From the NCBI GenBank assembly GCA_902761905.1, contig CACWMK010000020.1, positions 1 through 50,185 of the forward strand: 50,185 nt of DNA, in the 5' to 3' direction. The notes beneath the pieces were generated by a model that did no database searches, was not told the DNA's origin, and saw only the letters and a program-made list of their open reading frames with translations. Source of the DNA: an uncultured Prevotellaceae bacterium. GTDB lineage: Bacteria > Bacteroidota > Bacteroidia > Bacteroidales > Bacteroidaceae. Made by a program: the position numbers and the translations under genes. Shown piece by piece: positions 1 to 10,360 of the stretch (within the stretch, counting starts at the first letter, position 1; each line of letters starts with the position of its first letter).

Positions 1-42
1 CGCATTGCTGTACTCTTCTTCTATGGCGACTTGACGTTGCAT
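1..42 (-). CDS. Start of an unidentified gene (partial, runs off window)
   Basis: An open frame begins with ATG (complement of 40-42) and runs off the left edge: Met-Gln-Arg-Gln-Val-Ala-Ile-Glu-Glu-Glu-Tyr-Ser-Asn-Ala. A purine-rich AAGGAAG lies 5 bases upstream of the ATG, and a good Bacteroidota promoter lies about 120 bases upstream. Only 14 codons are visible, so no function can be given. Confidence 0.4.
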   Translation of the reverse strand, partial: MQRQVAIEEEYSNA

Positions 43-164
43 AAAGACTTCCTTGTGTTAAAATCGTTAAGTTAACTCACACTAAATCCTGTAGAACCTA
101 AATTTTAAATTGTTAAACTTGCTGTTTCTTGTCTCTAAGATGTCGTTTGTTCTGATTGACATTG

Positions 165-195
165 CAAAGATAAGGAAATTTTTGGCTGATTCCAA
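165..195 (-). promoter_or_regulatory. Promoter for the partial gene at the left edge
   Basis: On the minus strand TTG (complement of 193-195) is followed after 20 bases by TATCTTTG (complement of 165-172), a match to the Bacteroidota -33/-7 consensus. It would give a leader of roughly 115 bases before the ATG at 42; I see no known riboswitch in that leader. Confidence 0.5.
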
Positions 196-239
196 GAAAA
201 ATGCCAAATATTTATCGGATATCTAGTAAGAACATCGAT

Positions 240-1778
240 TTAGTTACCTGTTCGTATGTACTGCAGGGAGCGTTCTAATTGTGAATCGCGGCCAGTTGAA
301 TTGTATAAATCCATATCCAGAGGGGCCTCAATATCGGGCATTATGCCCACACCTTCCAAAATTTCGCCATCGAAAGAAACCGTGACATGCGAAGGAATAT
401 AGGCATAGAAGGAAGTCTTGCTTGGGATGCCAACAGCGCTGCCATAAGTTAGTGTATAACAAGTAGGGTCTGATAGAAGAGCGCACATTGCTCCCCAGGT
501 TTGCATACCGATAACTCGGCCATTCTCCATTTGCTTGGCACCAAGGCATGTCGCCTCTGACATACTCGCCGAATTGCAGTTCGCCAGCACTACTACAGGT
601 TCGGTGATGATGGCATGTTCCGTTGAAAGTGTTTTATATTTTCTAGGAAACAGCGACGAATAGTCGTAGCGGCCAATGCCTGTTTTGGTACGCATTGATA
701 CTGTATGGTGGCCGCCCTCGGGAAGCAACGCTCCCAATACGTACTGATAGTCATCGATATATCCACCATCATTATTACGAACGTCGATAATGACGCCCTT
801 TAACTGGCCGGCCTGATGGAGGGCTTGTATCTTGTTAAACCATAGATTCCATAAATCCTTAAAAGCCGAAGCGTAATAATCAGAACAAGGTGAACCAGAG
901 ATCCACCTATCGAAATAGGGTAAAAGATGGAAATTGCTGAGACTCAAATATACGATGCCATCACCAAAGGCGGCATAAGTGGCAGATAACTGATAATCTA
1001 GATCTATATCAAAGGGATTAAGCAAAATGCCCCATTGCTGGTATTTAATTGTCAAAACATTGTTGTAATAATTTAAGTCTTCCGGGGTCATTATCCTGAA
1101 GCCGCTAAGTTCCTGATAAGCGCTCTGATAACAAGCAAGATCATGCTCCTGTTTAGCAGTGCGATTCTCAATAGCTTCTAATTCTTGAATAGACAACAGA
1201 ATTTTTGGTAAAGCCTCTTGAATCTCTTTCTTGGCATATGAATCAGGATATGAAGAGACTAATGCATATTCTTCAAGTTTGTTTTCGCCTGCTTCGTCGG
1301 TAAAATAGTAATTAATCTCAGTTGATGCTATATTAAAATCCGGACGGGATGCATTACGGATTTCTGATGGATCTATAAGTAAGTAATTCTCTGTACAAAG
1401 ATTTTTAATTTGAAAAACGAAATGACCATCGTGAAATGGGCCTACTATCTCTTCGTACAGTTTCTGGAATTCCTCGTCAGTCACCGGGTTTGTCTCTTTG
1501 TCGCGCTTGTCAAGCTCCTGCATCTTTGGCAGATATTTGCTATAAACGGCATCCCAGTCGAGACCGAATTTCGCCTCATAATCCCATATACCATAGTTGC
1601 AGTTCAGGGCTGTCCACACTGCCTTGAACTGACCTTCAAAACATGTGTCAGATTCCAAGAAATTCAAATAATCGTCATGTCCGTACGATGGAACATAGTC
1701 TGCTTGTTCTCTACATGAGCCCACAGCCAGCATCGCGACCAAGGCTATAACCATACATATATTATTTCTCATCTTCAT
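240..1778 (-). CDS. S41 family peptidase lipoprotein
   Basis: A 512-residue protein. The N-terminal hydrophobic segment ends in LAVGSC, a lipobox, so it is probably a lipoprotein facing the periplasm or surface. The C-terminal half reads as an S41 (C-terminal-processing) peptidase: a strand with GVIIDVRNNDGG, then VVVLANCNSASMSEAT, where Ser in SASMSE is the expected nucleophile, then RVIGMQTWGAM. The N-terminal 200 residues are an acidic helical region typical of Bacteroidota S41 lipoproteins; I see no clear PDZ domain. It starts 15 bases after the barrel gene, which suggests an operon. The substrate is unknown. Confidence 0.8.
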   Translation of the reverse strand: MKMRNNICMVIALVAMLAVGSCREQADYVPSYGHDDYLNFLESDTCFEGQFKAVWTALNCNYGIWDYEAKFGLDWDAVYSKYLPKMQELDKRDKETNPVTDEEFQKLYEEIVGPFHDGHFVFQIKNLCTENYLLIDPSEIRNASRPDFNIASTEINYYFTDEAGENKLEEYALVSSYPDSYAKKEIQEALPKILLSIQELEAIENRTAKQEHDLACYQSAYQELSGFRIMTPEDLNYYNNVLTIKYQQWGILLNPFDIDLDYQLSATYAAFGDGIVYLSLSNFHLLPYFDRWISGSPCSDYYASAFKDLWNLWFNKIQALHQAGQLKGVIIDVRNNDGGYIDDYQYVLGALLPEGGHHTVSMRTKTGIGRYDYSSLFPRKYKTLSTEHAIITEPVVVLANCNSASMSEATCLGAKQMENGRVIGMQTWGAMCALLSDPTCYTLTYGSAVGIPSKTSFYAYIPSHVTVSFDGEILEGVGIMPDIEAPLDMDLYNSTGRDSQLERSLQYIRTGN

Positions 1779-1793
1779 TTATCTTAATTGTTG

Positions 1794-2477
1794 TTAGAAA
1801 ATGTAACAAATGGCCGCCTGCAGACCAATCGTGGTGTTATATTTTGGATCCTTAATCTGCATATAGTCTTTTTGAATGCTCGTGGTGCTATAGTAGCAAC
1901 GGGCCTCCACCTGTGTTGCCCAGTGCTTGGCAAAGACGTATTCTATGCCGATTCCACCCACGAGACCTGCATCCCAGCGCTGATCGCGTTCGTCGATAAA
2001 TTCCACGCTTTCATCTATATTATAAGTTGCATCAGTAACAGCGTCACAAAAAGTACCGCGGTTACGACTGCTACACCAATAACCACCATAAGCGCCCAGA
2101 TTCAGGAATCCACGAACCTGCTTGCTTCCAAAACTGAACGATGCCATCACCGGGAGTTGCAGGTAGTCGTTGCGTGTGTCATAATCTATGGAATTAAGTA
2201 GGTGTCTATACTGTCGATGATTCTTCTGAGTCCAGTTGAAATCGGCCCTTACAGCCAACCAATCATAAAAATTGTACTGTCCAGTAGCACCAATCGTTAA
2301 TCCCCATTTACCTTCATAATCCCAGTCGTCCATGTAGTGCTTATTAATAGAATAGTGGTTCCAGGCGCCGCCCATCGTTACGCCTGCCCGCCATTGTGCA
2401 TGGGCTGGACTAATATTCAGCACGGCTGCCATTATCACTATTGCTACAATCGCAAAATTCATCAATAGTTGTTTCAT
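1794..2477 (-). CDS. Outer-membrane beta-barrel protein (PorT-like)
   Basis: 227 residues. A signal peptide ends in PAHAQ, followed by alternating polar/aromatic strands (for example WRAGVTMGGAWNHYS, ATQVEARCYYS) and a C-terminal strand ending in YIF, the usual BAM-targeting aromatic end. This fits the small PorT / OMP_b-brl family of 8-stranded barrels. First gene of an operon with the S41 peptidase. A -7-like TACCTTTG lies at the complement of 2516-2523, without a clear -33. No specific function can be assigned. Confidence 0.7.
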   Translation of the reverse strand: MKQLLMNFAIVAIVIMAAVLNISPAHAQWRAGVTMGGAWNHYSINKHYMDDWDYEGKWGLTIGATGQYNFYDWLAVRADFNWTQKNHRQYRHLLNSIDYDTRNDYLQLPVMASFSFGSKQVRGFLNLGAYGGYWCSSRNRGTFCDAVTDATYNIDESVEFIDERDQRWDAGLVGGIGIEYVFAKHWATQVEARCYYSTTSIQKDYMQIKDPKYNTTIGLQAAICYIF

Positions 2478-2515
2478 ATGCTTGAAAAATACCGTTAAAA
2501 TCTAATTACCATCGG

Positions 2516-2523
2516 CAAAGGTA
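2516..2523 (-). promoter_or_regulatory. Probable -7 element for the barrel / S41 operon
   Basis: The minus strand reads TACCTTTG here, 38 bases before the barrel start codon. No TTG is found at the expected -33 distance, so this rests on one box only. Confidence 0.4.
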
Positions 2524-2643
2524 CGATTTTCTATCTAAAAAGACATAAAAAACTAATAAAAAGTTTGGAGAATCTCCAATTTTTAACAAATGGCTAGTGA
2601 GATTCGGAAATAATTTCAGTGATGCACGAACGCCATCTTTTAG

Positions 2644-2859
2644 TTATTTTTTGGAGATATGAGAAGAGGCTAGCAGTGAATGCGAGCCTCTTTTCTTATT
2701 GTATGCCAGGAACCTGTCCCTTGGCAGCTCACCATGGAATCCTAGCGCCCTGGATGCCAGTAATCTGTCTGGCATATCCTTACCAGCGCACCCTCCCGAC
2801 ACATTGTCAAGTTGCTCTTCATTGAGTTCCTCTTGCTTCTTGTTCTCTTCTTGTTTCAT
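2644..2859 (-). CDS. GG-leader peptide, 71 aa, with repeat-derived tail
   Basis: The frame is open from 2943, but the start is placed at the internal Met (complement of 2857-2859) because this ATG has the same upstream context (a TTTTTAAACATTAC-like run) as its paralogues. The leader is MKQEENKKQEELNEEQLDNVSGG and the core begins CAGKDMPDRLLASRALGFHG. From about residue 40 the protein translates the hairpin repeat at 2661-2727 (LPRDRFLAYNKKRG...), so the C-terminal part is probably recent read-through of a repeat. Double-Gly leaders are cut by C39 peptidase-type ABC exporters in other bacteria. None is nearby, so function is unknown. Confidence 0.6.
   Translation of the reverse strand: MKQEENKKQEELNEEQLDNVSGGCAGKDMPDRLLASRALGFHGELPRDRFLAYNKKRGSHSLLASSHISKK
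2661..2727. repeat. Composite hairpin repeat, copy 1
   Basis: Two hairpins in a row. The first has AAGAGGCT (2664-2671) pairing with AGCCTCTT (2685-2692), followed by TTTTCTTATT. The second is GTATGCCAGGAACCTGTCCC plus TTGGCAG, with TGCCA/TGGCA arms. The same pair in the same order recurs near 4466, 6341 and 7229. Here it overlaps the 3' end of a GG-leader peptide gene. Confidence 0.85.
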
Positions 2860-2893
2860 AATCGTAATGTTTAAAAATAATTCTACAACCCCC

Positions 2894-3007
2894 TTATAGT
2901 GCTTTTTCTTTATTTTCTTTGTCTGTTTTGAAGGAAACTCCACCTGCTACGTAGTCAAGCTGCTCGTCGTTGAGCTCCTCTTGCTTCTTGTTTTCTTCTT
3001 TTGCCAT
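2894..3007 (-). CDS. GG-leader peptide, 37 aa
   Basis: ATG at the complement of 3005-3007, stop TAA at 2894-2896. The leader is MAKEENKKQEELNDEQLDYVAGG, nearly the same as in its paralogues; the core is VSFKTDKENKEKAL, lysine- and glutamate-rich and without cysteine. It is first in its transcript, immediately behind a copy of the duplicated promoter-leader, with the 71-aa peptide 34 bases downstream. The leader type is that of Bacteroidales natural-product precursors cut after Gly-Gly; the product and its activity are unknown. Confidence 0.65.
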   Translation of the reverse strand: MAKEENKKQEELNDEQLDYVAGGVSFKTDKENKEKAL

Positions 3008-3114
3008 AATTGTAATGTTTAAAAATTAATGATTGAACTTATTTCTGCTGCAAAAGTAGGCAAAATTTCCGAAACTGATGTATCATTGCCGGAAAAAGTT
3101 GTATCAAATCAGGA
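3008..3114 (-). promoter_or_regulatory. Duplicated promoter-leader, copy 1
   Basis: About 107 bases nearly identical to 5608-5717 and 7023-7130, with a shorter copy at 4756-4806. On the minus strand TACTTTTG (complement of 3051-3058) is a good -7 box, followed by an AT-rich leader ending in TTTTTAAACATTACAATT before the ATG. The conserved upstream half (complement of about 3059-3114) has no standard -33 TTG at the right distance, so it may bind an activator. Confidence 0.65.
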
Positions 3115-3176
3115 AAAATGTCAGGTCCCTTGGCAGACTTGTATGCCAGGTACCTGTCCCCTGGCATACTTTTTTC
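3115..3176 (+). repeat. TGCCAGG hairpin repeat with T-run
   Basis: A partial repeat copy (GTCCCTTGGCAG, about 3124-3136) is followed by a perfect 10-bp stem: GTATGCCAGG (3141-3150) against CCTGGCATAC (3160-3169), loop of 9, then TTTTTT. It could end plus-strand transcription, but no plus-strand gene lies upstream. It sits between the minus-strand peptide promoter and the plus-strand kinase promoter. Confidence 0.75.
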
Positions 3177-3184
3177 GAAAATGC

Positions 3185-3215
3185 TTGGATGTTTATACTT
3201 TTTTTTCTATCTTTG
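3185..3215 (+). promoter_or_regulatory. Promoter of the STAS-kinase gene
   Basis: TTG at 3185-3187, 20-base spacer, TATCTTTG at 3208-3215: a full Bacteroidota promoter 28 bases before the ATG at 3244. This promoter decides the start, because the longer open frame from 3118 begins upstream of it. Confidence 0.65.
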
Positions 3216-3243
3216 CAAAGTGATAACTAAAAACATAAGTATT

Positions 3244-4434
3244 ATGACGCTGCAATTTACCAATAACGAAGGTCACGCCATCATTACACTTTGCGGACGA
3301 CTCGATACCTCTTGTGCCATGCAGACACAAGCCAGAATCAATCAGTTTTTGTCGGCTCAAAGCCCCATCCAGAGTGTTACCGTTAATGCCGCAGAGCTCG
3401 AATACGTGTCGAGTTCGGGCTTGCGCATCCTGCTTTCGCTGGCCAAACAATATAAGGATTTCAAACTTGTTGAGGTTAATGCCGATGTTTTCGACGTGCT
3501 TAGCATGACCGGTTTTGTGAAGATCATGCACGTAGAACGTGCCCTGCGCCAGATGAGTATCGAGGGTTGCGAGATTCTGGGTGTGGGCGGTGTGGGCACC
3601 GTTTATCGCTACAACGATGACACCATCATAAAAGTGTTCCGCGATGGTACTACCATCGACGAGGTGCGCAACGAGATTACCATGTCGAAAGAGGCCTTTG
3701 TGATGGGCATGCCCACCGCCATCTCGTTCGATATCGTCAAGGTAAGCTCGCAGTACGGTCTGGTTTACGAGCTGCTGCATGCCGACACCCTCAGTTCGCT
3801 CATCATGCACCAGCCTGAGCGTATCGCTGAGTATGCCCGTATGTATGCCAATCTGTTCCACCAACTGCATGCCATCCAGGTGCCAGCCGATAGCTGTGTG
3901 CCCAATGCCCTCGAACACGAACGCAAACAGGTGCTTCACATCCGCCGTTATTTCCCGCAAGAGGCTATCGACCTGCTGCTCCATATTATTGATGCCGTAC
4001 CAGAAGGCAATCGCTTGCTGCATCTCGATCTGCAGGCCAAGAATGCCATGGTACAGGGCGACGAACTCATGCTCATCGATATGGGCGAAGTGGGCTACGG
4101 CCACCCCGTACTCGATCTGGCACACGCCTATTCGTCGATGGTTAAGTTAATTGGCGATTACGAGGCTGTCATCGGCATGCCCCGCGAGTTAGGCAAGCAA
4201 TTTTTTGATCTTGCTATCGACTATTATTTCGAGGGTCTGCCAGCCGATGTTATTGCCCTGCGTAAACAGCAGATAGCCGCTGTGGCAAGCATCCGTAACT
4301 ACAGTTGGCTTGCCCTCAGCGACTCCTTCCCCGAGGCTGTCATCCAGCAGTGTCAGCTAGCCTTCAACGAGCGTGTCATCCCCCACCGCGATCACATCCT
4401 CAACGTCGTCAGCACCCTAAAGGATTGGGTGTAA
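3244..4434 (+). CDS. STAS domain fused to an APH-like kinase
   Basis: 396 residues from ATG 3244. Residues 1-100 form a STAS (anti-anti-sigma factor) domain: FTNNEGHAIITLCGRLDT, then EYVSSSGLRILLSLA with Ser56-58 at the position of the SpoIIAA phosphoserine. Residues 110-396 are an aminoglycoside-phosphotransferase/choline-kinase-like fold: a Gly-rich loop (GVGGVGTVYRY), Lys in IIKVF, the catalytic loop HLDLQAKN (His260, Asp262, Asn267) and a metal-binding Asp279 in LIDMGEVGYGHP. The fusion suggests self-phosphorylation or partner switching controlled by a small-molecule-type kinase; this is inference. Monocistronic, with its own promoter and a hairpin terminator. Confidence 0.75.
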   Translation: MTLQFTNNEGHAIITLCGRLDTSCAMQTQARINQFLSAQSPIQSVTVNAAELEYVSSSGLRILLSLAKQYKDFKLVEVNADVFDVLSMTGFVKIMHVERALRQMSIEGCEILGVGGVGTVYRYNDDTIIKVFRDGTTIDEVRNEITMSKEAFVMGMPTAISFDIVKVSSQYGLVYELLHADTLSSLIMHQPERIAEYARMYANLFHQLHAIQVPADSCVPNALEHERKQVLHIRRYFPQEAIDLLLHIIDAVPEGNRLLHLDLQAKNAMVQGDELMLIDMGEVGYGHPVLDLAHAYSSMVKLIGDYEAVIGMPRELGKQFFDLAIDYYFEGLPADVIALRKQQIAAVASIRNYSWLALSDSFPEAVIQQCQLAFNERVIPHRDHILNVVSTLKDWV

Positions 4435-4465
4435 TTAAATGTCAGGAGTCCCCATGGACGAACGA

Positions 4466-4531
4466 AAGAAAGGCCAGCAGTTAATGCTAGCCTTTTCTTA
4501 TTGTATGCCAGGAACCTGTCCCTTGGCAGGT
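4466..4531 (+). terminator. Composite hairpin repeat, copy 2, acting as terminator
   Basis: AAGGCCAGCA (4470-4479) pairs with TGCTAGCCTT (4485-4494), one mismatch, followed by TTTCTTATT. It is 35 bases after the STAS-kinase stop, so it is a likely intrinsic terminator. It is followed by the TGCCA/TGGCA hairpin (4506-4528) and an extra TTGTCCCTTGGCAGG (4531-4545), a partial duplication. Same composite repeat as at 2661, 6341 and 7229. Confidence 0.7.
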
Positions 4532-4548
4532 TGTCCCTTGGCAGGTCA

Positions 4549-4755
4549 TTAACCACTTGCACTAGAGAAGTCAACAGGCCAGTCAACAAAAAGACTAGAA
4601 AACAATCCTCCTCCCGACACATTGTCGAGTTCACCGTCGCTTAGTGGCCATGCACCGGCTTCCACGAGTTCGTCCCTCAACTTTTTTGCTTCTGCATCCA
4701 GTTTCTTCAACTGCTGCTTCTTCTGCTCAATCTGTTCTGCTGTAAGCGTTGCCAT
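4549..4755 (-). CDS. GG-leader peptide, 68 aa, with long helical leader
   Basis: MATLTAEQIEQKKQQLKKLD opens a charged, probably helical leader of about 48 residues, ending PLSDGELDNVSGG. The core GLFSSLFVDWPVDFSSASG is hydrophobic and aromatic, unlike the basic cores of its neighbours. The leader is longer than in the 36-45 aa peptides but has the same LD-N-V-(S/A)-G-G end, so one processing enzyme could serve both classes. It has its own short copy of the duplicated promoter-leader at 4756-4806. A single-gene transcript; function unknown. Confidence 0.65.
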   Translation of the reverse strand: MATLTAEQIEQKKQQLKKLDAEAKKLRDELVEAGAWPLSDGELDNVSGGGLFSSLFVDWPVDFSSASG

Positions 4756-4806
4756 AATTGTAATGTTTAAAAATTAATGATTGAATTGATTTCTGCTGCA
4801 AAAGTA
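4756..4806 (-). promoter_or_regulatory. Duplicated promoter-leader, short copy
   Basis: The first 51 bases match the other copies, including TACTTTTG (complement of 4799-4806) and the AT-rich leader to the ATG. The upstream half found in the other three copies is missing; the sequence beyond 4806 runs into the 3' end of the next peptide gene. Confidence 0.6.
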
Positions 4807-4823
4807 GACAGTCCATTTGACAT

Positions 4824-4961
4824 CTAGTGCTTATTTGGGCCATAACGATGCTGATTAGATAAAGGTGAATATTTATTATTCACACTAGTTCCACCACCTG
4901 CTACGTTATCAAGCTGCTCGTCGGTGAGCTCTTCTTGCTTTTTGTTTTCTTCTGTTTTCAT
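4824..4961 (-). CDS. GG-leader peptide, 45 aa
   Basis: ATG at the complement of 4959-4961, stop TAG at 4824-4826. The leader is MKTEENKKQEELTDEQLDNVAGG; the core is GTSVNNKYSPLSNQHRYGPN followed by Lys-His: polar, Asn/Tyr/His-rich, no cysteine. Last of four peptide genes read from the promoter-leader at 5608 (order 5607, 5433, 5281, 4961). The start is 17 bases after the stop of the 100-aa gene. Function unknown. Confidence 0.6.
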   Translation of the reverse strand: MKTEENKKQEELTDEQLDNVAGGGTSVNNKYSPLSNQHRYGPNKH

Positions 4962-4978
4962 AATAGTAATGTTTATAA

Positions 4979-5281
4979 TCAGTATAAACTCAAGTTACCT
5001 GTATCCGTGGTTTCTTTGGCAGTTTTTTTCGCTTGTTCCTTTACATTGTCCCAGAAAAATCCGCCATTGATTTCATTGAGTTGCTCATCGGAGAGCTCAA
5101 TGGCGCCAGCTGCTACGAGTTCGTCGTAGATAGCCTTCATCTCTCTAGTTTTCTCTATGAGCAATTGCTTCTTCTGCTCAATCTGTTGGCCTTCGGCCTT
5201 CTTCTGTCGCGACTCGGTAGAGTCGATGCAAGCATCACTCTGCTCTCGCTGCTCCATCAGTTCTGCTGTAAGCGTTGCCAT
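4979..5281 (-). CDS. GG-leader peptide, 100 aa, with long helical leader
   Basis: The leader begins MATLTAELMEQ like the 68-aa peptide but is longer, with a Gln/Lys/Glu-rich predicted helix and an end of AIELSDEQLNEINGG at about residue 74. The core is FFWDNVKEQAKKTAKETTDT followed by GNLSLY: an aromatic start and an amphipathic basic helix, the kind of core seen in unmodified class II bacteriocins. That analogy is inference. It lies between two short-leader peptide genes in the same presumed transcript. Confidence 0.65.
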   Translation of the reverse strand: MATLTAELMEQREQSDACIDSTESRQKKAEGQQIEQKKQLLIEKTREMKAIYDELVAAGAIELSDEQLNEINGGFFWDNVKEQAKKTAKETTDTGNLSLY

Positions 5282-5313
5282 AATCGAAACTTATTAATGG
5301 GTTACTATACTAT

Positions 5314-5433
5314 TCAAAAGGGAGTAGCGAAAGGGGAACCTTCTGAACTGGGTATATCTCTCAAGCCACCTGCTACGTTGTCGAGCTGCTCATCTTTGAG
5401 CTCTTCTTGCTTATTGTTTTCTTCTACTTTCAT
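5314..5433 (-). CDS. GG-leader peptide, 39 aa
   Basis: ATG at the complement of 5431-5433, stop TGA at 5314-5316. Leader MKVEENNKQEELKDEQLDNV followed by AGG; core LRDIPSSEGSPFATPF, Ser/Pro-rich and near neutral. Second gene of the transcript starting at 5607. Function unknown. Confidence 0.6.
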   Translation of the reverse strand: MKVEENNKQEELKDEQLDNVAGGLRDIPSSEGSPFATPF

Positions 5434-5475
5434 AATAGTAATGCTTTATAATTAAGGATTGAATAGAGACATTGA

Positions 5476-5607
5476 TTACTTTTTTAATAAACCGTGGATT
5501 TGTTTAGTGAGAGGGCCGCAACCGCAACCAGGGGTCTTTCCACCTGCTACTTTGTCAAGCTGCTCATTGTTGAGCTCATCTTGCTTCTTGTTTTCTTCTT
5601 TTTTCAT
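5476..5607 (-). CDS. GG-leader peptide, 43 aa, with Cys-Gly motif
   Basis: ATG at the complement of 5605-5607, stop TAA at 5476-5478. Leader MKKEENKKQDELNNEQLDKV followed by AGG; core KTPGCGCGPLTKQIHGLLKK, basic, with two cysteines in GCGCG. It is one of only two peptides of the set with cysteine in the core (the other is at 2644), and so the best candidate for a disulfide, thioether or metal-binding product. First gene behind the promoter-leader copy at 5608. Confidence 0.65.
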   Translation of the reverse strand: MKKEENKKQDELNNEQLDKVAGGKTPGCGCGPLTKQIHGLLKK

Positions 5608-5717
5608 AATTGTAATGTTTAAAAATTAATGATTGAATTGATTTCTGCTGCAAAAGTAGGAAAAAAAATCGAAATAGATGTATCACTGCTGGAAAAAGTT
5701 GTATCAAATCAGGAAAA
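5608..5717 (-). promoter_or_regulatory. Duplicated promoter-leader, copy 3
   Basis: A near-identical copy of 3008-3114 and 7023-7130. TACTTTTG lies at the complement of 5651-5658. It differs mainly at 5660-5675 (AAAAAAATCGAAATAG against AAAATTTCCGAAACTG), while the outer part, with the complement of GGAAAAAGTTGTATCAAATC, is conserved. Confidence 0.65.
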
Positions 5718-5731
5718 AATAATTAAAAATC

Positions 5732-5762
5732 TTGCAATTATCATATATTCTTTTTATCTTTG
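5732..5762 (+). promoter_or_regulatory. Promoter of the frameshifted small gene
   Basis: TTG at 5732-5734, 20 bases, TATCTTTG at 5755-5762. It points at the ATG at 5798. Confidence 0.6.
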
Positions 5763-5797
5763 CCCTCAAAATTAATCATTATCAACAAACTATCATT

Positions 5798-6294
5798 ATG
5801 AAACAAAAAGAATTTATGAATGTAAAGCAGCACGTTGCTACGCTGGCTATAGCCATACGTCGCTTGCTCAAGCAGAGAACTATTTAAAGGCCGAGTTCAG
5901 CGATTATTCACAGTGGGAAACTGACGGCGTGGGGCGTTATGATGATAGTGATGGATTTTATTACTATAAAGTTTTTTACAACGACGAATGCGCAATAAGT
6001 TTCGACTTCAGCGATGCCGACTGTAAATACTTATGCCTAGTGGGGTATAACTTCTACTCACCTATGTCGCCAGAGACTGTAATGGACGAGCTAGAGCGCA
6101 ATGGATTCAAGAATATGGGCTTAATAAGCTTTCCCGAAGACGAAGATGGCGACATTACCTATCTCTATCTTTCGGCCGACGGCACGCTAGAGGTGCAGAT
6201 CGCATTCTGGAAGTCAGACGAGAGTAATGAAGACTGCTGGAGTATCAGTTTTCAACCGCTAGACGAGAACGACTTTAAATACCTTGTAAAATAG
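5798..6294 (+). pseudogene. Small acidic protein gene, apparently frameshifted near 5820
   Basis: The promoter-proximal ATG at 5798 opens a frame that stops after 29 codons (TAA 5885-5887). The frame that codes for the rest is open from 5776 to the stop at 6292, but has no ATG before a GTG at 5929. Read in that second frame, the segment before 5929 gives protein-like sequence (CYAGYSHTSLAQAENYLKAE) that joins smoothly to GRYDDSDGFYYYKVFYNDEC. A single-base indel near 5815-5830 would join ATG 5798 to this frame and give about 165 residues. The product is acidic and aromatic, with no family recognised. Alternatively a 121-aa protein starts at GTG 5929. Confidence 0.55.
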
Positions 6295-6301
6295 TAATAT
6301 G

Positions 6302-6400
6302 AGATGCCAGGTGTCAGTCCACATGGCAGGTACCAAGAAAAAGGCCAGCAGTAAATGCTAGCCTTTTCTTATTGTATGCCAGGAACCTGTCCCTTGACAG
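6302..6400 (+). terminator. Hairpin repeats, copy 3, after the small acidic gene
   Basis: A degenerate TGCCAGG...TGGCAGG hairpin (about 6304-6330), then AAGGCCAGCA (6341-6350) pairing with TGCTAGCCTT (6356-6365) and TTTCTT, then TATGCCAGGAACCTGTCCCT with a damaged right arm (TGACAG instead of TGGCAG). The middle hairpin can terminate the plus-strand gene ending at 6294. Confidence 0.65.
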
Positions 6401-6431
6401 CCTAATCGTAATGTTTTAAAAAATTCTACAT

Positions 6432-6710
6432 CTACTTTATAACTTTTTTGCTTACTTTGCCTGCTTTGCCGGCAGCGCCTCCACCTGCTACTTTGTCGAG
6501 CTGCTCGTCGGTGAGCTCCTCTTGCTTCTTATTGTCTTCTGTTTTCATAATCGTAATGTTTAAAAATAATTCTACATCTACTTTATAACTTTTTTGCATT
6601 TTGCCTGCTTTGCCGGCAGCGCCTGCTTTGCCGGCAAAGCCTCCACCTGCTACGTAGTCAAGCTGCTCGTCGGTGAGCTCCTCTTGCTTTTTGCTTTCTT
6701 CTGTTTTCAT
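6432..6710 (-). CDS. Double GG-leader precursor, 92 aa, two leader-core units in one frame
   Basis: Unit A starts at 6710 (MKTEESKKQEELTDEQLDYV + AGG, core GFAGKAGAAGKAGKMQKSYK). It reads without a stop through the usual inter-gene spacer (VELFLNITI) into unit B. Unit B has its own ATG at the complement of 6546-6548 (MKTEDNKKQEELTDEQLDKV + AGG, core GAAGKAGKVSKKVIK). Comparison with the 36-aa gene at 6912 shows unit A lost about two bases where that gene has GTAAGC, which removes its TAG. So this is either one fused precursor or two overlapping products. The cores are Gly/Ala/Lys repeats, strongly cationic. Confidence 0.65.
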   Translation of the reverse strand: MKTEESKKQEELTDEQLDYVAGGGFAGKAGAAGKAGKMQKSYKVDVELFLNITIMKTEDNKKQEELTDEQLDKVAGGGAAGKAGKVSKKVIK

Positions 6711-6733
6711 AATAGTAATGTTTAAAAATTAAA

Positions 6734-6760
6734 GTATGCCAGGAACCTGTCCCTTGGCAG
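6734..6760. repeat. TGCCAGG hairpin repeat, single copy
   Basis: GTATGCCAGGAACCTGTCCC followed by TTGGCAG, between two peptide genes of one transcript. It lacks the AGGCC/GGCCT partner hairpin seen in the composite copies. Confidence 0.75.
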
Positions 6761-6771
6761 GCGTAGTTCCT

Positions 6772-6882
6772 TCACTTCGGGAGATCAGATTTATTGTAAC
6801 TTGTAAACTCTCCACCTCCCGACACGTTGTCAAGCTGCTCGTCGGTGAGCTCCTCTTGCTTCTTATTGTCTTCTGTTTTCAT
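6772..6882 (-). CDS. GG-leader peptide, 36 aa
   Basis: ATG at the complement of 6880-6882, stop TGA at 6772-6774. Leader MKTEDNKKQEELTDEQLDNV + SGG; core GEFTSYNKSDLPK, short and polar. Second gene of the transcript that starts at 7022. Function unknown. Confidence 0.6.
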   Translation of the reverse strand: MKTEDNKKQEELTDEQLDNVSGGGEFTSYNKSDLPK

Positions 6883-6911
6883 AATCGTAATGTTTAAAAA
6901 TAATTCTACAT

Positions 6912-7022
6912 CTACTTTATAACTTTTTTGCTGCTTACTTTGCCTGCTTTGCCTCCACCTGCTACGTAGTCAAGCTGCTCGTCGGTGAGCTCTTCTTGCT
7001 TTTTGTTCTCTTCTGGTTTCAT
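6912..7022 (-). CDS. GG-leader peptide, 36 aa, Lys-rich core
   Basis: ATG at the complement of 7020-7022, stop TAG at 6912-6914. Leader MKPEENKKQEELTDEQLDYV + AGG; core GKAGKVSSKKVIK, cationic and nearly the same as the core of unit B at 6432. First gene after the promoter-leader copy at 7023. Function unknown. Confidence 0.6.
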   Translation of the reverse strand: MKPEENKKQEELTDEQLDYVAGGGKAGKVSSKKVIK

Positions 7023-7130
7023 AATCGTAATGTTTTAAAATTAATGATTGAACTTATTTCTGCTGCAAAAGTAGGCAAAATTTCCGAAACTGATGTATCA
7101 CTGCCGGAAAAAGTTGTATCAAATCAGGAA
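7023..7130 (-). promoter_or_regulatory. Duplicated promoter-leader, copy 4
   Basis: Almost identical to 3008-3114; TACTTTTG at the complement of 7066-7073. It drives the rightmost peptide transcript (7022 to 6432). Confidence 0.65.
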
Positions 7131-7160
7131 AATGCCTGTGTCTTATACTGATATAGGTTG

Positions 7161-7288
7161 ACACATTTAGAAACTTAATAAATGTGTATGCCAGGTACCT
7201 GTCCCCTGGCAGACTGTAATTATGAAGAGAGGCCAGCAGTGAATGCTAGCCTTTTCTTATTATATGCCAGGAACCTGTCCCTTGGCAG
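7161..7288. repeat. Inverted repeat and composite hairpin repeat, copy 4
   Basis: ACACATTTA (7161-7169) pairs perfectly with TAAATGTGT (7179-7187). Then a TGCCAGG hairpin (TATGCCAGGTACCTGTCCCC + TGGCAG, about 7188-7212), the AGGCCAGCA/TGCTAGCCT hairpin (7230-7251) with TTTTCTTAT, and another TATGCCAGGAACCTGTCCCT + TGGCAG (7262-7288). The block ends 3 bases before the stop of the thioesterase gene and may form the 3' end of the ilv transcript. Confidence 0.75.
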
Positions 7289-7291
7289 CTC

Positions 7292-8032
7292 TTACTTAAA
7301 AATCACCTTGCTGCGGCAGCATTCGGTGGTGGCGTCTTTGCAGATGCGGATGCAGAATTCGTTGTCGGCTGTCTGCTCGCGATAGAACGACAGAGTGTCG
7401 CCTTGATGGGCTTCGGCTACGTATGCTATCTCGAAACGACGGATCTGATGCTGGCGATACCAGTCGAGATCCCAGAGGTCGAGCACGTGCTCGATATACT
7501 TAACGGAGTTGATATGGCCGTTGATGTCGACATCGTTGTATTTGGTCTCGACGGTAGCCACGAGTTGGGCTGCATCGCCCATCTTTACTCGCCCACCCTT
7601 GTCGATCGGGCATTCCTTGTCAGCTACTATCCAATTGTTGATGGCGCCATTGTCGATAGAGAAAATGTCGGTAGGCTGACGGCTCTCGGTATCGATCATC
7701 GCCCAGATGCTTCGGCCGTATCCATAAACCTGGCCATCCTGACCAACCACGCGGAAATTACGCGAGGTGAAGTATCGCATGGCGCTCTCAACCCAAGTCT
7801 CGACATTAAACTTGGTGTACATCTGCGGCATCTCGTCCATCTCGATAGCCAGGCGCGACAGCACCCACGAGCGATTGATGGTGAGCAGGTATTTCATACC
7901 GAAACCACGATCGGCAGAGTGGAAATCGGCAGCATTGAGCATGTGATTGCCCAGATGGCCCATGAACAGTCGCTGCGAGAAATCGCAGTGGAACGGTTCG
8001 GCCAGAAATTCGTAACAACCTATCTTATCCAT
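7292..8032 (-). CDS. Acyl-ACP thioesterase
   Basis: 246 residues from the ATG at the complement of 8030-8032, which overlaps the ilvN stop (ATGGATAA). The longer frame from 8077 is not needed. It has two hot-dog halves. The N-half has FHCDFSQRLFMGHLGNHMLN; the C-half has ETKYNDVDINGHINSVKYIE, matching the plant/bacterial FatA/FatB-type family (PF01643) with the Asp-Asn-His catalytic region (NDVDINGHIN). It releases fatty acids from acyl carrier protein in the cytoplasm. Its place behind ilvN is common in Bacteroidota and may link branched-chain precursors to branched fatty-acid synthesis; that link is inference. Confidence 0.8.
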   Translation of the reverse strand: MDKIGCYEFLAEPFHCDFSQRLFMGHLGNHMLNAADFHSADRGFGMKYLLTINRSWVLSRLAIEMDEMPQMYTKFNVETWVESAMRYFTSRNFRVVGQDGQVYGYGRSIWAMIDTESRQPTDIFSIDNGAINNWIVADKECPIDKGGRVKMGDAAQLVATVETKYNDVDINGHINSVKYIEHVLDLWDLDWYRQHQIRRFEIAYVAEAHQGDTLSFYREQTADNEFCIRICKDATTECCRSKVIFK

Positions 8033-8564
8033 TCTCACGCTCCTCCAAAAATGCACTAACCTGTTCCTGCATGCCACGCGTCACGGCGATACGGCCAGAG
8101 CGTGTGTACTGCAACACGCAACCAAAGGTGTCGAGTGCTCGATACAATGAAACAATATCCTCAGTCACACCGTGCATCTGCACGATGGTATATGTGGGAT
8201 TTACCTCGATGATGCTGGCCTGGAATCGGCGAACAGTACGCGATATCTCAGGATTCTCGAGCAGCATGGGTGTAGACAGCTTGTAAAGTCCCGACTCACG
8301 GATAAACAACTGTTCATCAGTGAAATAGTTGGCCTTTACCACGTCTATCTTCTTCTCTATCTGACGGGTAATTTTTACAATCTGATCCTCGTCGCTCCAA
8401 GCGGTGATGGTGTACTTGTGTACTCCGGGAATACTTGAAGCCGACACATTAAGGCTCTCGATATTTACCTGGCGACGGGTGAACACAGCGGTAATCTGAT
8501 TAAGAATACCAGCCACATTCTCCGAGTAAACCAGCAGTGTATATAAATTCTTCCTATTCTCCAT
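8025..8564 (-). CDS. ilvN: Acetolactate synthase small (regulatory) subunit
   Basis: 179 residues: an N-terminal ACT domain (YTLLVYSENVAGILNQITAV, residues 7-80) and a C-terminal ALS_ss_C domain. It binds the IlvB catalytic subunit and carries valine feedback inhibition in this family. It follows ilvB across an 86-base spacer made of short repeats, and its stop overlaps the thioesterase start. Length and domain order are normal. Confidence 0.9.
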   Translation of the reverse strand: MENRKNLYTLLVYSENVAGILNQITAVFTRRQVNIESLNVSASSIPGVHKYTITAWSDEDQIVKITRQIEKKIDVVKANYFTDEQLFIRESGLYKLSTPMLLENPEISRTVRRFQASIIEVNPTYTIVQMHGVTEDIVSLYRALDTFGCVLQYTRSGRIAVTRGMQEQVSAFLEERENG

Positions 8565-8567
8565 CTC

Positions 8568-8648
8568 TCAATTCTTAATTCTCAATTGTCAATTATCAAT
8601 TATCAATTGTCAACTGTCAATTATCAACTGTCAATTATCAATTTAATT
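8568..8648. repeat. AT-rich short-repeat spacer between ilvB and ilvN
   Basis: About 80 bases built from TCAATTATCAATT / TCAATTGTCAAC-type units. It separates ilvB (stop 8651) from ilvN (start 8564). A shorter tract of the same units separates ilvD from ilvB. Confidence 0.85.
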
Positions 8649-8650
8649 GA

Positions 8651-10360
8651 TCACACCTCAAGCTGCATCTTGTCGACGTCCATACCCGGAGGTGTCATTG
8701 GCAGCACATTATCCTCTTCCATGATGGCACACTCAAGCAGGAACGGGCCATCGGTGGTGAGCATCTTCTTGACCAGTCCGGGCAGATCCTTGCGGTCGAC
8801 GGCTGCTGCATAGTTGATACCATAACCCTGAGCAATGAGCTCATAGTTGGGGTTCATCATCTTGGTGAACGATTTGCGGCGCATCCAGAACATATCCTGC
8901 CACTGGCGCACGTTGCCCAGGTAGTGATTATTCAACACAATCATCTTTACAGGCTTCTGCTGCTCCATGATGGTACCCAGCTCCTGGATATTCATCTGGA
9001 ATCCACCATCGCCCATAAAGCAGCACACTGTGCGCTCAGGGGCGGCAAACGTGGCTCCGATGGCAGCTGGCAGACCGTAACCCATAGTGCCCAGACCACC
9101 ACTAGTGCACAGACTGCGCTTGTGGTGATACTTGAAGTAGCGGGTTGCAAACAGCTGATTCTGACCGACATCCGTAACAAGAACGGTATCGTCAGGTGCA
9201 GCCTGGGCTACTGCATTTACCACCTCGCCCATCTTGAGCGGACCCTCGGTGGGATGGATGGCGGGCTCGATAACCTTTTCGCGCTCCATAGCATCGAGTT
9301 CCTTAAACGAGTCGCGCCACTGCTTATGGTTGCAAGCATCGATGAGTGCGGTAATAGCGGGTAATGATTCCTTACAATCGGCTACTACTGCCACATCGGT
9401 CTTTACGTTCTTGTCTATCTCGCTGCGGTCGATATCCAAATGGATAATCTTGGCCTGCTTAGCGTAGGTCTTAAGGTTGCCTGTAACACGATCGCTGAAG
9501 CGCATACCGATGGCAATCAGCACATCGCACTGCTGCTCTTTCAGGTTGACAGCATAGTTACCGTGCATGCCAAGCATACCCACATTGAGCGGATGATTTG
9601 ACGGCAGTGCCGACAGACCAAGCATGGTGCGACCTGCGGGGATATCGGCCTTTTCGAGGAATGCCTGCAGCTCTTTCTGGGCATTACCCAGCTCCACTCC
9701 CTGACCAACCAGCGCCAGAGGTTTCTTGGCATTGTTTATCAGTTCGGCAGCTCGGCGCACTGCCTCGTGATCCAGTTTGGGATAAGGCACATACGAACGA
9801 ATGAAGTTGCACTTCACAGGCTCCCAATCGATCTCTTCGACCTGGGCGTTCTTGGTAAAGTCGAGCACCACAGGACCAGGACGACCTGTGCGGGCAATAT
9901 AGAATGCACGGCTGACGGCCCAAGCCACATCTTCGGCATGACGGATCTGATAGCTCCATTTTGAGATAGGCTGCGACACGCCAACGAGATCGACCTCCTG
10001 GAAGAAGTCGGTACCCAGTGCGCCTGTAGGCACCTGTCCGGCAATCACCACGATAGGTGTAGAGTCCATCATGGCATCAGCAATACCTGTCAACGTGTTG
10101 GTTACGCCAGGACCGCTGGTTACGAGTACCACACCCACTTCGCCACTAACGCGGGCATAGCCCTCAGCGGCATGGGTAGCAGCCTGTTCGTGGCGCACCA
10201 ATATATGGTCGAAACATTTCTTTTCGCCTCGTGTATAGTCATAAAGCGCATCGTAGGTAGGCATGATCGAACCTCCGGGATAACCAAAGATGGTCTTTAC
10301 CCCCTCGGCCTTCAGTGCCCTCATCAGCGCCTTTGCACCTGTTATTCTATCTTTCAACAT
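8651..10360 (-). CDS. ilvB: Acetolactate synthase large (catalytic) subunit
   Basis: 569 residues, full length for the family. It joins two pyruvates (or pyruvate and 2-oxobutyrate) using thiamine diphosphate, the first common step of valine, leucine and isoleucine synthesis. Visible are the N-terminal ThDP Glu region (GYPGGSIMPTYDAL, then HEQAATHAAEGYAR), the central domain, and the ThDP/Mg motif MGDGGFQMNIQELGTI at about residue 440. Second gene of the ilvD-ilvB-ilvN operon. Confidence 0.93.
   Translation of the reverse strand: MLKDRITGAKALMRALKAEGVKTIFGYPGGSIMPTYDALYDYTRGEKKCFDHILVRHEQAATHAAEGYARVSGEVGVVLVTSGPGVTNTLTGIADAMMDSTPIVVIAGQVPTGALGTDFFQEVDLVGVSQPISKWSYQIRHAEDVAWAVSRAFYIARTGRPGPVVLDFTKNAQVEEIDWEPVKCNFIRSYVPYPKLDHEAVRRAAELINNAKKPLALVGQGVELGNAQKELQAFLEKADIPAGRTMLGLSALPSNHPLNVGMLGMHGNYAVNLKEQQCDVLIAIGMRFSDRVTGNLKTYAKQAKIIHLDIDRSEIDKNVKTDVAVVADCKESLPAITALIDACNHKQWRDSFKELDAMEREKVIEPAIHPTEGPLKMGEVVNAVAQAAPDDTVLVTDVGQNQLFATRYFKYHHKRSLCTSGGLGTMGYGLPAAIGATFAAPERTVCCFMGDGGFQMNIQELGTIMEQQKPVKMIVLNNHYLGNVRQWQDMFWMRRKSFTKMMNPNYELIAQGYGINYAAAVDRKDLPGLVKKMLTTDGPFLLECAIMEEDNVLPMTPPGMDVDKMQLEV

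What the first reader, a model, noticed from the sequence alone, without database searches (positions are those of the whole stretch)
2644..7022. Ten-gene array of orphan Gly-Gly leader peptides
Ten minus-strand ORFs (eleven leader-core units) share a leader ending LD-(N/Y/K)-V-(A/S)-G-G or a variant, while the cores differ widely: cationic GKAG repeats, a Cys-Gly core, a hydrophobic aromatic core, polar cores. A conserved leader with variable cores is the mark of precursor peptides cut by a C39-type exporter. No exporter, radical SAM enzyme or other maturase is in the window, so the array relies on enzymes elsewhere. It may be an expandable set of secreted peptides.
Basis: partly seen in the sequence, partly recalled or inferred. 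Interest (0 to 1): 0.85.

Follow-up and report, generated by a model that had tools for sequence, protein, structure and literature searches.

The report
Orphan secreted-peptide array sharing one exporter
A bacterium of the Prevotella group carries a row of small genes that join the same delivery tag to different short peptides, and they appear to be switched on together with, and sent out through, an export machine encoded elsewhere in its genome.

Summary
In detail: ten minus-strand ORFs at 2644-7022 carry eleven leader-core units, all with Leu at -12 and -7, Val/Ile at -4 and GG. The array is not isolated. One C39 exporter was detected in the 92%-complete genome, in an NHLM-type operon on another contig, with related GG peptides beside it. 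Three array operons and that exporter operon share a 21-bp direct-repeat operator: 11 sites in the genome, 0 control matches, lying exactly 20 bp before TAnnTTTG in 32 of 32 sites here and in relatives. Of 398 genus genomes, 12 have the short leader; 11 of these have the full exporter, which 31 of 398 have. Leaders are under purifying selection; cores show no detectable constraint. Against: the operator also occurs in 10 genomes without a full exporter match, and no exporter region examined elsewhere carries this exact operator. Radical SAM maturation is unsupported. Best reading: a co-regulated set of secreted, probably unmodified peptides exported in trans. Whether the cores are signals or toxins is open. 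New variant of a known kind.

The parts
6912..7022 (-). Unit P1, short leader, core GKAGKVSSKKVIK
   Evidence: leader profile E 9.4e-20
6772..6882 (-). Unit P2, short leader, core GEFTSYNKSDLPK; related cores in KHT3 and L077
6432..6710 (-). Units P3a and P3b in one frame, cores rich in GKAG
   Evidence: two leader matches, 6606-6710 and 6438-6548
5476..5607 (-). Unit P4, core KTPGCGCGPLTKQIHGLLKK
   Evidence: best TIGR04149 score 20.7 bits, below cut-off
5314..5433 (-). Unit P5, core LRDIPSSEGSPFATPF
4979..5281 (-). Unit P6, long leader, core FFWDNVKEQAKKTAKETTDTGNLSLY
   Evidence: E 7.7e-21; related copies in KHT3
4824..4961 (-). Unit P7, core GTSVNNKYSPLSNQHRYGPNKH
4549..4755 (-). Unit P8, long leader, core GLFSSLFVDWPVDFSSASG
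   Evidence: E 3.6e-28; related copies in KHT3 and L077
2894..3007 (-). Unit P9, core VSFKTDKENKEKAL
2644..2859 (-). Unit P10; core runs into a dispersed repeat and terminator-like element, doubtful
7094..7131 (-). Operator in front of P1 (two half-sites 21 bp apart)
   Evidence: 0 mismatches
5679..5716 (-). Operator in front of P4
   Evidence: 0 mismatches
3079..3116 (-). Operator in front of P9
   Evidence: 0 mismatches
7066..7073 (-). TAnnTTTG element of P1, 20 bp after the operator
5651..5658 (-). TAnnTTTG element of P4, 20 bp after the operator
3051..3058 (-). TAnnTTTG element of P9, 20 bp after the operator
4466..4529 (-). Terminator-like hairpin with dispersed repeat after P8; similar sequence at 2664-2727, 6337-6400 and 7225-7288
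   Evidence: of these four only 4469-4495 met the scan's terminator rule; the scan found 10 sites against 4.7 in shuffles
3118..4434 (+). STAS plus APH-like kinase ORF lying between array operons; start uncertain
5798..6294 (+). Disrupted lipoprotein-like gene divergent from P4; an open relative lies at the corresponding place in KHT3
   Evidence: about 130 bp missing against L073

Best explanation
The array encodes pre-peptides of one co-regulated secretion system. An AraC-type regulator binds a 21-bp direct repeat in front of P1, P4 and P9 and in front of the exporter operon on contig C14, and activates the TAnnTTTG promoter 20 bp away (inferred from geometry). The leaders dock on the C39 domain of the NHLM-type ABC1 protein, are cut after GG, and the cores, mostly of 12-26 residues, leave through ABC1/ABC2, the HlyD-like and RND-type adaptors and the TolC-like channel (inferred from families). 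Shown here: the leaders, one detected C39 exporter, related leaders beside it, the shared operator in this genome, co-occurrence of leader and exporter, selection on leaders. Inferred: binding, activation, cleavage, export, and that the cores are unmodified. What the cores do is not shown; secreted signals or narrow-range bacteriocin-like peptides both fit.
For: One C39 match in the genome; it is TIGR03796 at 892 bits, cut-off 853, in an operon with ABC2, HlyD-like, RND-type adaptor and TolC-like genes. GG peptides with related leaders lie beside it. In 8 of 11 exporter regions fetched from other genomes a GG-type ORF lies at the exporter, with long leaders in G323, G131 and G276. Short leader and full exporter co-occur in 11 of 12 genomes against 31 of 398 overall; long leader 8 of 10. 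Operator: 11 sites in this genome, 0 in the backwards control; 10 of 11 operons hold a GG-type leader ORF (the two leaders at C10 end GA) and one starts with a leader-lipoprotein chimera. Spacing to TAnnTTTG is 20 bp in 32 of 32. Of 21 operator sites in other genomes, 11 lie downstream of a homologous AraC gene (8 directly, 3 within about 1.1 kb) and 7 precede GG peptides. Leaders pN/pS 0.30, cores 1.33 in 10 pairs, Fisher p 0.0011.
Against: No expression, binding or secretion data. Only 4 of the 14 genomes with the operator have a full exporter match (G000, G269, G276, G292), and none of 11 exporter regions from other genomes has the TGAKACA operator at the exporter within 4 mismatches: the operator goes with the regulator more than with the exporter. 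In KHT3 the exporter carries TGGCACA half-sites and the arrays TGAKACA. In relatives the operator also precedes lipoprotein or small membrane-protein genes. The assembly is 92% complete in 100 contigs, so a second exporter may be missing. G255 and G396 have long leaders but no full exporter match (82% and 89% complete). Core pN/pS is not distinguishable from neutral (p 0.29). Relatedness of genomes is not corrected for in the co-occurrence tests.
Confidence: 0.72

Rival explanations
1. The cores are peptide signals: exported peptides are sensed by the membrane AraC-type regulators, giving a feedback loop and strain-specific communication. (A sub-reading of the best explanation.)
For: Short cores; a one-component regulator with apparent membrane segments beside the exporter; regulator recognition segment changing with operator class; families of cores shared between genomes.
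Against: No ligand or sensing test. The C14 regulator has only 232 residues with no recognised sensor domain. Many different cores per genome would need many receptors or a broad one.
Confidence: 0.3
2. The cores are bacteriocin-like toxins against related Bacteroidales. (A sub-reading of the best explanation.)
For: GG leader and C39 exporter; TIGR01847 cut-off passed by 3 of 10 ORFs; variable cores; bacteroidetocins come from the same order (PMC6671954, passages seen).
Against: Cores are mostly 12-26 residues and polar; only P4 has two Cys; no immunity gene was recognised beside the units (inspection of ORFs, not a family search); mature bacteroidetocins have 42 residues and their own transporter in the locus.
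Confidence: 0.35
3. The peptides are post-translationally modified (RiPPs) by enzymes elsewhere, for example glycosylated.
For: Three similar ORFs follow two GG peptides behind the same operator at C22; the first is Glyco_transf_8 by Pfam, the third has the same best NCBIfam hit, far below its cut-off, the second only resembles them.
Against: No modifying enzyme was recognised beside the array; no radical SAM near the GG loci found except a sulfatase maturase. LanC, YcaO and other maturase families were not searched.
Confidence: 0.15
4. The array is a decaying duplicate array without function.
For: A fused pair (P3), a core running into a repeat (P10), a disrupted lipoprotein-like gene, seven dispersed repeats in and next to the array.
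Against: Leaders keep strong silent-site bias, operator and promoter spacing are intact at three operons, related units recur in other genomes.
Confidence: 0.1

Closest known systems
NHLP/NHLM precursor and export system (TIGR03793-TIGR03798; PMC2887384, passages seen)
   Same: Same exporter family (TIGR03796 met, TIGR03797 just below cut-off), GG cleavage, paralogous precursors with hypervariable cores, precursors that may lie far from the export genes
   Different: Leaders score below the NHLP and Nif11 cut-offs, no TOMM or LanM genes recognised beside the array (not searched as families), shared AraC-type operator
Pneumococcal rtg system (PMC7018657, abstract and one section read)
   Same: [quoted passage not shown] leader positions -15, -12, -7, -4 matter for related PCATs
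   Different: Gram-positive, Rgg/SHP-like regulation, peptides encoded in the rtg locus
Bacteroidetocins (PMC6671954, passages seen)
   Same: GG peptides and C39 ABC exporter in Bacteroidetes, including Prevotella
   Different: 42-residue Cys-containing cores, leaders of 15-16 residues, four-gene locus with transporter next to the peptide
Bacteroidales RiPP clusters with GG precursors (PMC10352776, passages seen)
   Same: GG precursors; two clusters (BGC3, BGC5) lack a PCAT in the locus
   Different: Clusters with rSAM or LanC-like enzymes; the passages seen describe no maturase-free array tied by an operator to a distant exporter
TIGR04149 rSAM-modified precursors (NCBIfam)
   Same: Bacteroidetes GG leader; P4 comes nearest
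   Different: Below cut-off, no radical SAM partner found

Membership tests
C39 double-glycine leader peptides | GG at -2/-1 with hydrophobic residues at -4, -7, -12 | tested here: met
   11 of 11 units; -15 is Q or A, not hydrophobic; positions from PMC7018657, section read
C39 double-glycine leader peptides | Curated score for TIGR01847 or PF10439 | tested here: inconclusive
   TIGR01847 passed by 3 of 10 ORFs (P2, P3, P6), PF10439 by none
C39 double-glycine leader peptides | Cut and exported by a C39 exporter | not testable with these tools
   Exporter present and co-occurs; cleavage and export need an experiment
NHLM export system | TIGR03796, TIGR03797 and TIGR03794 together | tested here: inconclusive
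   892.4 against 853.3 met; 699.9 against 709.4 and 99 against 156.2 not met; gene order HlyD-ABC1-ABC2
NHLP / N11P precursors | TIGR03793 or TIGR03798 score | tested here: not met
   Best 32.3 of 50.9 and 21 of 32.3 bits, both from the doubled ORF P3
TIGR04149 rSAM-modified RiPP | Curated score | tested here: not met
   Best 20.7 of 25 bits, P4
TIGR04149 rSAM-modified RiPP | Radical SAM maturase beside the precursors | tested here: not met
   None of 15 radical SAM matches in the genome lies in the window
Bacteroidetocins | At least two Cys in the core and transporter in the same locus | tested here: not met
   Only P4 has two Cys; no C39 in the window; features from passages of PMC6671954
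CTB family bacteriocin NF038167 | Curated score of 32 bits | tested here: inconclusive
   Only the doubled ORF P3 passes (35.4); the other 9 ORFs are below

The most novel reading that the evidence does not exclude
A modular secreted-peptide communication system in Prevotella: membrane AraC-type regulators of several specificities, each with its own 21-bp direct-repeat half-site at a fixed 20 bp from the promoter, control dispersed, expandable cassettes of GG peptides that share one NHLM exporter, and the exported cores feed back on the regulators. It would be a GG-peptide signalling network in Gram-negative Bacteroidales with regulator and operator co-varying.
Probability: 0.2. Interest if true: 0.85.

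Novelty: new variant of a known kind. Interest (0 to 1): 0.62.

Why it matters
Genome mining usually looks for precursor peptides next to their exporter or maturase. Here the link runs through a shared promoter operator, which assigns orphan peptides to a distant exporter and gives a search handle for more. It makes secretion and function testable in P. ruminicola KHT3, where related units occur, and bears on how Bacteroidales compete or signal.

Tried and rejected
Phage or plasmid origin: the 4.7-kb array region has one 78-base match at 81% in each of the phage and plasmid collections, both to window 5185-5262 inside P6 (not followed up); among viral contigs 333 stretches matched a leader pattern and none was confirmed. 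Radical SAM maturation: unsupported. RNA families: no Rfam match in window 1-9000 at gathering score. Cassette-like recombination sites: TGCCAGGNACCTGTCCC lies 7 times in and next to the array and nowhere else in the window at up to 2 mismatches, but has 41 copies genome-wide at up to 1 mismatch, so it is read as a dispersed repeat. Positive selection on cores: 15 overlapping pairs gave core pN/pS 3.45; 10 largely independent pairs give 1.33, bootstrap 0.76-9.9, p 0.29 against neutral, so it is not claimed. The sigma-70 scan is uninformative (13 sites, 9.1 in shuffles). Ten paper searches listed no report of this regulon; they cover open-licence PMC papers, and one search listed 15 of 6,816. 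The exporter threshold of 847 bits was set after seeing the list; at the curated cut-off 28 of 398 genomes qualify and the leader counts become 10 of 12 and 7 of 10.
Full report
Observation. The window is contig C20, bases 1-50185, of a 3.45-Mb genome in 100 contigs, 92% complete. Ten minus-strand ORFs between 2644 and 7022 hold eleven leader-core units. Nine leaders are short (consensus MKxEENKKQEELTDEQLDxVAGG) and two long (MATLT...EAGA...). All eleven have L at -12, L at -7, V or I at -4 and GG, positions that earlier work ties to PCAT recognition (PMC7018657, one section read). One ORF (6432-6710) fuses two units; the core of the last unit (2644-2859) runs into a dispersed repeat and a terminator-like element and is doubtful.

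Operons. By operator and layout the array falls into P1-P3 (operator 7094-7131), P4-P8 (5679-5716) and P9-P10 (3079-3116); co-transcription is inferred. A 62-base piece of the same promoter region, without an operator match, also precedes P8. A STAS-APH ORF (3118-4434) and a disrupted lipoprotein-like gene (5798-6294) lie between the operons. The latter matches an open gene at the corresponding place in KHT3, with about 130 bp missing in the window.

Exporter in trans. PF03412 has one match in the genome, C14:10392-10778, in a 713-residue protein scoring 892 bits to TIGR03796 (cut-off 853). Beside it lie an ABC2 protein (699.9 bits, cut-off 709.4), a HlyD-like protein (99 bits to TIGR03794, cut-off 156.2), an RND-type adaptor and a TolC-like protein. 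The same locus holds GG peptides with related leaders: short ones at C14:9395-9499 and 7960-8139, and a long one ending at 7662 with its leader from 7904. The short leader has 13 matches in the genome at E <= 0.001, nine of them the array; the long leader has 10 at E <= 1e-5, two of them short partial matches. Other leaders sit on C6, C10 (two, ending GA rather than GG), C22 and C48.

Operator. TTTCC-N5-TGAKACA-N3-TTTTSC-N5-TGAKACA has 11 matches in the genome with up to 3 mismatches (eight with 0, one with 1, two with 2) and none read backwards. The sites precede three array operons, the C14 exporter operon, the divergent C14 peptides, C6, C10, C48 and three places on C22. Ten of the eleven operons hold a GG-type leader ORF (in the exporter operon it is the second ORF); the eleventh starts with an ORF that begins like a long leader and continues as a lipoprotein. 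At C48 a GG peptide is followed by a C10 peptidase with a Spi inhibitor domain. At C22 two GG peptides, the second with a shortened leader, are followed by three similar ORFs, the first of which is a GT8 glycosyltransferase by Pfam. The regulator gene (C14:8317-9015, 232 residues, HTH_18) lies between the two C14 operators; its membrane segments are read by eye.

Operator in relatives. With up to 1 mismatch 14 of 398 genus genomes, this one included, have the site. Only 4 of these 14 have a full exporter match (G000, G269, G276, G292). Of 21 sites in other genomes, 11 have a homologue of the C14 regulator upstream on the same strand: 8 directly (L052-L056, L060-L062) and 3 within about 1.1 kb (L065-L067). 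Seven precede GG peptides (L051, L058, L063, L064, L068-L070). Three show neither: L057 begins at a contig end, L059 and L071 lack both. Several sites precede lipoprotein or small membrane-protein genes. In all 32 sites (11 here, 21 elsewhere) the first TAnnTTTG starts exactly 20 bp after the operator; 20 shuffled patterns gave 0 matches in 159 kb of this genome. TAnnTTTG as the Bacteroidetes -7 element is recalled. The fixed spacing fits an activator contacting RNA polymerase (inference).

Second operator class. TGnnACA-N14-TGnnACA-N20-TAnnTTTG has 38 distinct matches in 776 kb of held loci (these overlap and were picked for leaders, exporters or operators) and 0 for the reversed control. Exporter operons of KHT3-like G269 (L111) and of G292 (L112) carry TGGCACA half-sites; a long-leader pair of G292 (L110) does too, and the long-leader pair at C22:52123 of this genome has TGACACA/TGGCACA (L017). 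The regulators printed beside such sites carry CGLSRRTFYRLF in 4 of 4 (L111, L112, two in L124). Beside TGAGACA-first sites 6 of 8 printed regulators carry GIPSRATLARLF (C14, L053, L054, L055, L056, L061); L052 and L060 differ. This suggests that regulator and operator change together. It also speaks against one universal operator: none of 11 exporter regions fetched from other genomes has the TGAKACA form at the exporter within 4 mismatches, and in KHT3 arrays and exporter carry different half-sites.

Comparative evidence. In genome contigs the short leader confirms 7 loci of 393 candidate stretches: two of P. ruminicola KHT3, four of uncultured Prevotella or Prevotellaceae, one labelled Clostridiales. 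In 398 genus genomes the short leader occurs in 12; 11 of these have a full-length NHLM_ABC1 match of at least 847 bits, which 31 of 398 have (p 1e-12; 10 of 11 against 30 of 397 without this genome). The exception is G255 (82% complete). The long leader occurs in 10, 8 with the exporter (p 2e-8); exceptions G255 and G396. Relatedness is not corrected for. In 8 of 11 exporter regions fetched elsewhere a GG-type ORF lies at the exporter: long leaders in G323, G131 and G276, a short one in G292, membrane-segment GG ORFs in several. G265 and G150 showed none; in G103 my pattern found only spurious ORFs, but the leader profile matches 1.7 kb from its exporter. G292 has a larger array: 14 GG peptides in 6.5 kb on one strand, with two leader-lipoprotein chimeras and one more ORF, and no TGAKACA operator within 5 mismatches.

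Selection. Ten largely independent pairs of related units give leader pN/pS 0.30 (p 1e-7 against neutral) and core 1.33 (p 0.29); core and leader differ (Fisher p 0.0011). In three pairs (P1 and two of the IPLFD family) the core has no substitution although the leader has. An earlier set of 15 overlapping pairs gave a core ratio of 3.45, which I do not rely on.

Maturation. TIGR04149 is not met (best 20.7 of 25 bits). Of 15 radical SAM matches in the genome none is in the window; the one near a GG locus found here (C14:17999) passes TIGR03942, sulfatase maturase, and lies beside a sulfatase-like ORF. LanC, YcaO and other maturases were not searched.

Known context. The NHLM exporter paper notes precursors located far from modification and export genes (PMC2887384, passages). 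RtgAB secretes a set of coregulated GG peptides (PMC7018657, abstract and one section). Bacteroidetocins (PMC6671954, passages) and a Bacteroidales RiPP survey (PMC10352776, passages) are the nearest Bacteroidales cases. Ten paper searches listed nothing on this regulon.

Conclusion. The array is a co-regulated set of secreted-peptide precursors, most likely served by one NHLM-type exporter in trans. Export and regulation are inferred from sequence; the function of the cores is open between signal and bacteriocin-like toxin.

Noticed in passing
L133 (G292:C46) 362-6911: A larger array in another genome of the genus: 14 GG peptides on one strand with two lipoproteins whose N-terminus is a GG-type leader.
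   Followed up: partly
L025 2064-2666 (C22) and L133 1976-2836, 3024-4007: Leader-lipoprotein chimeras: ORFs that begin as a GG-peptide leader and continue as a lipoprotein, in two genomes.
   Followed up: no
L111 9911-10135, L112 5699-5923, L113 4456-4818, L116 11082-11471: Exporter operons hold a small protein with one apparent membrane segment and coiled coil that ends in a GG motif and short tail; a membrane-anchored exporter substrate is possible.
   Followed up: no
window 3118-4434; L117 9446-9751; L071 1023-1430: STAS or HATPase (anti-sigma type) proteins recur: STAS-APH in the array, STAS next to HlyD in G103, HATPase_c_2 behind an operator in G255.
   Followed up: partly
L049 8325-10751; L113 1230-3752; L122 7396-9867: C10 peptidase beside GG peptides in three genomes (Pfam domains tested for L049 only; the others by tblastn at 82-83% identity).
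   Followed up: partly
window 2704-7281 (7 copies): Dispersed palindromic repeat, 41 copies in the genome, in this window only in and next to the array.
   Followed up: yes
window 5185-5262: A 78-base part of P6 matches one phage record and one Phocaeicola plasmid record at 81%.
   Followed up: no
many genomes: ABC proteins of about 584 residues matching TIGR03796 from about position 133 on, without the C39 part, in many genomes of the genus.
   Followed up: no
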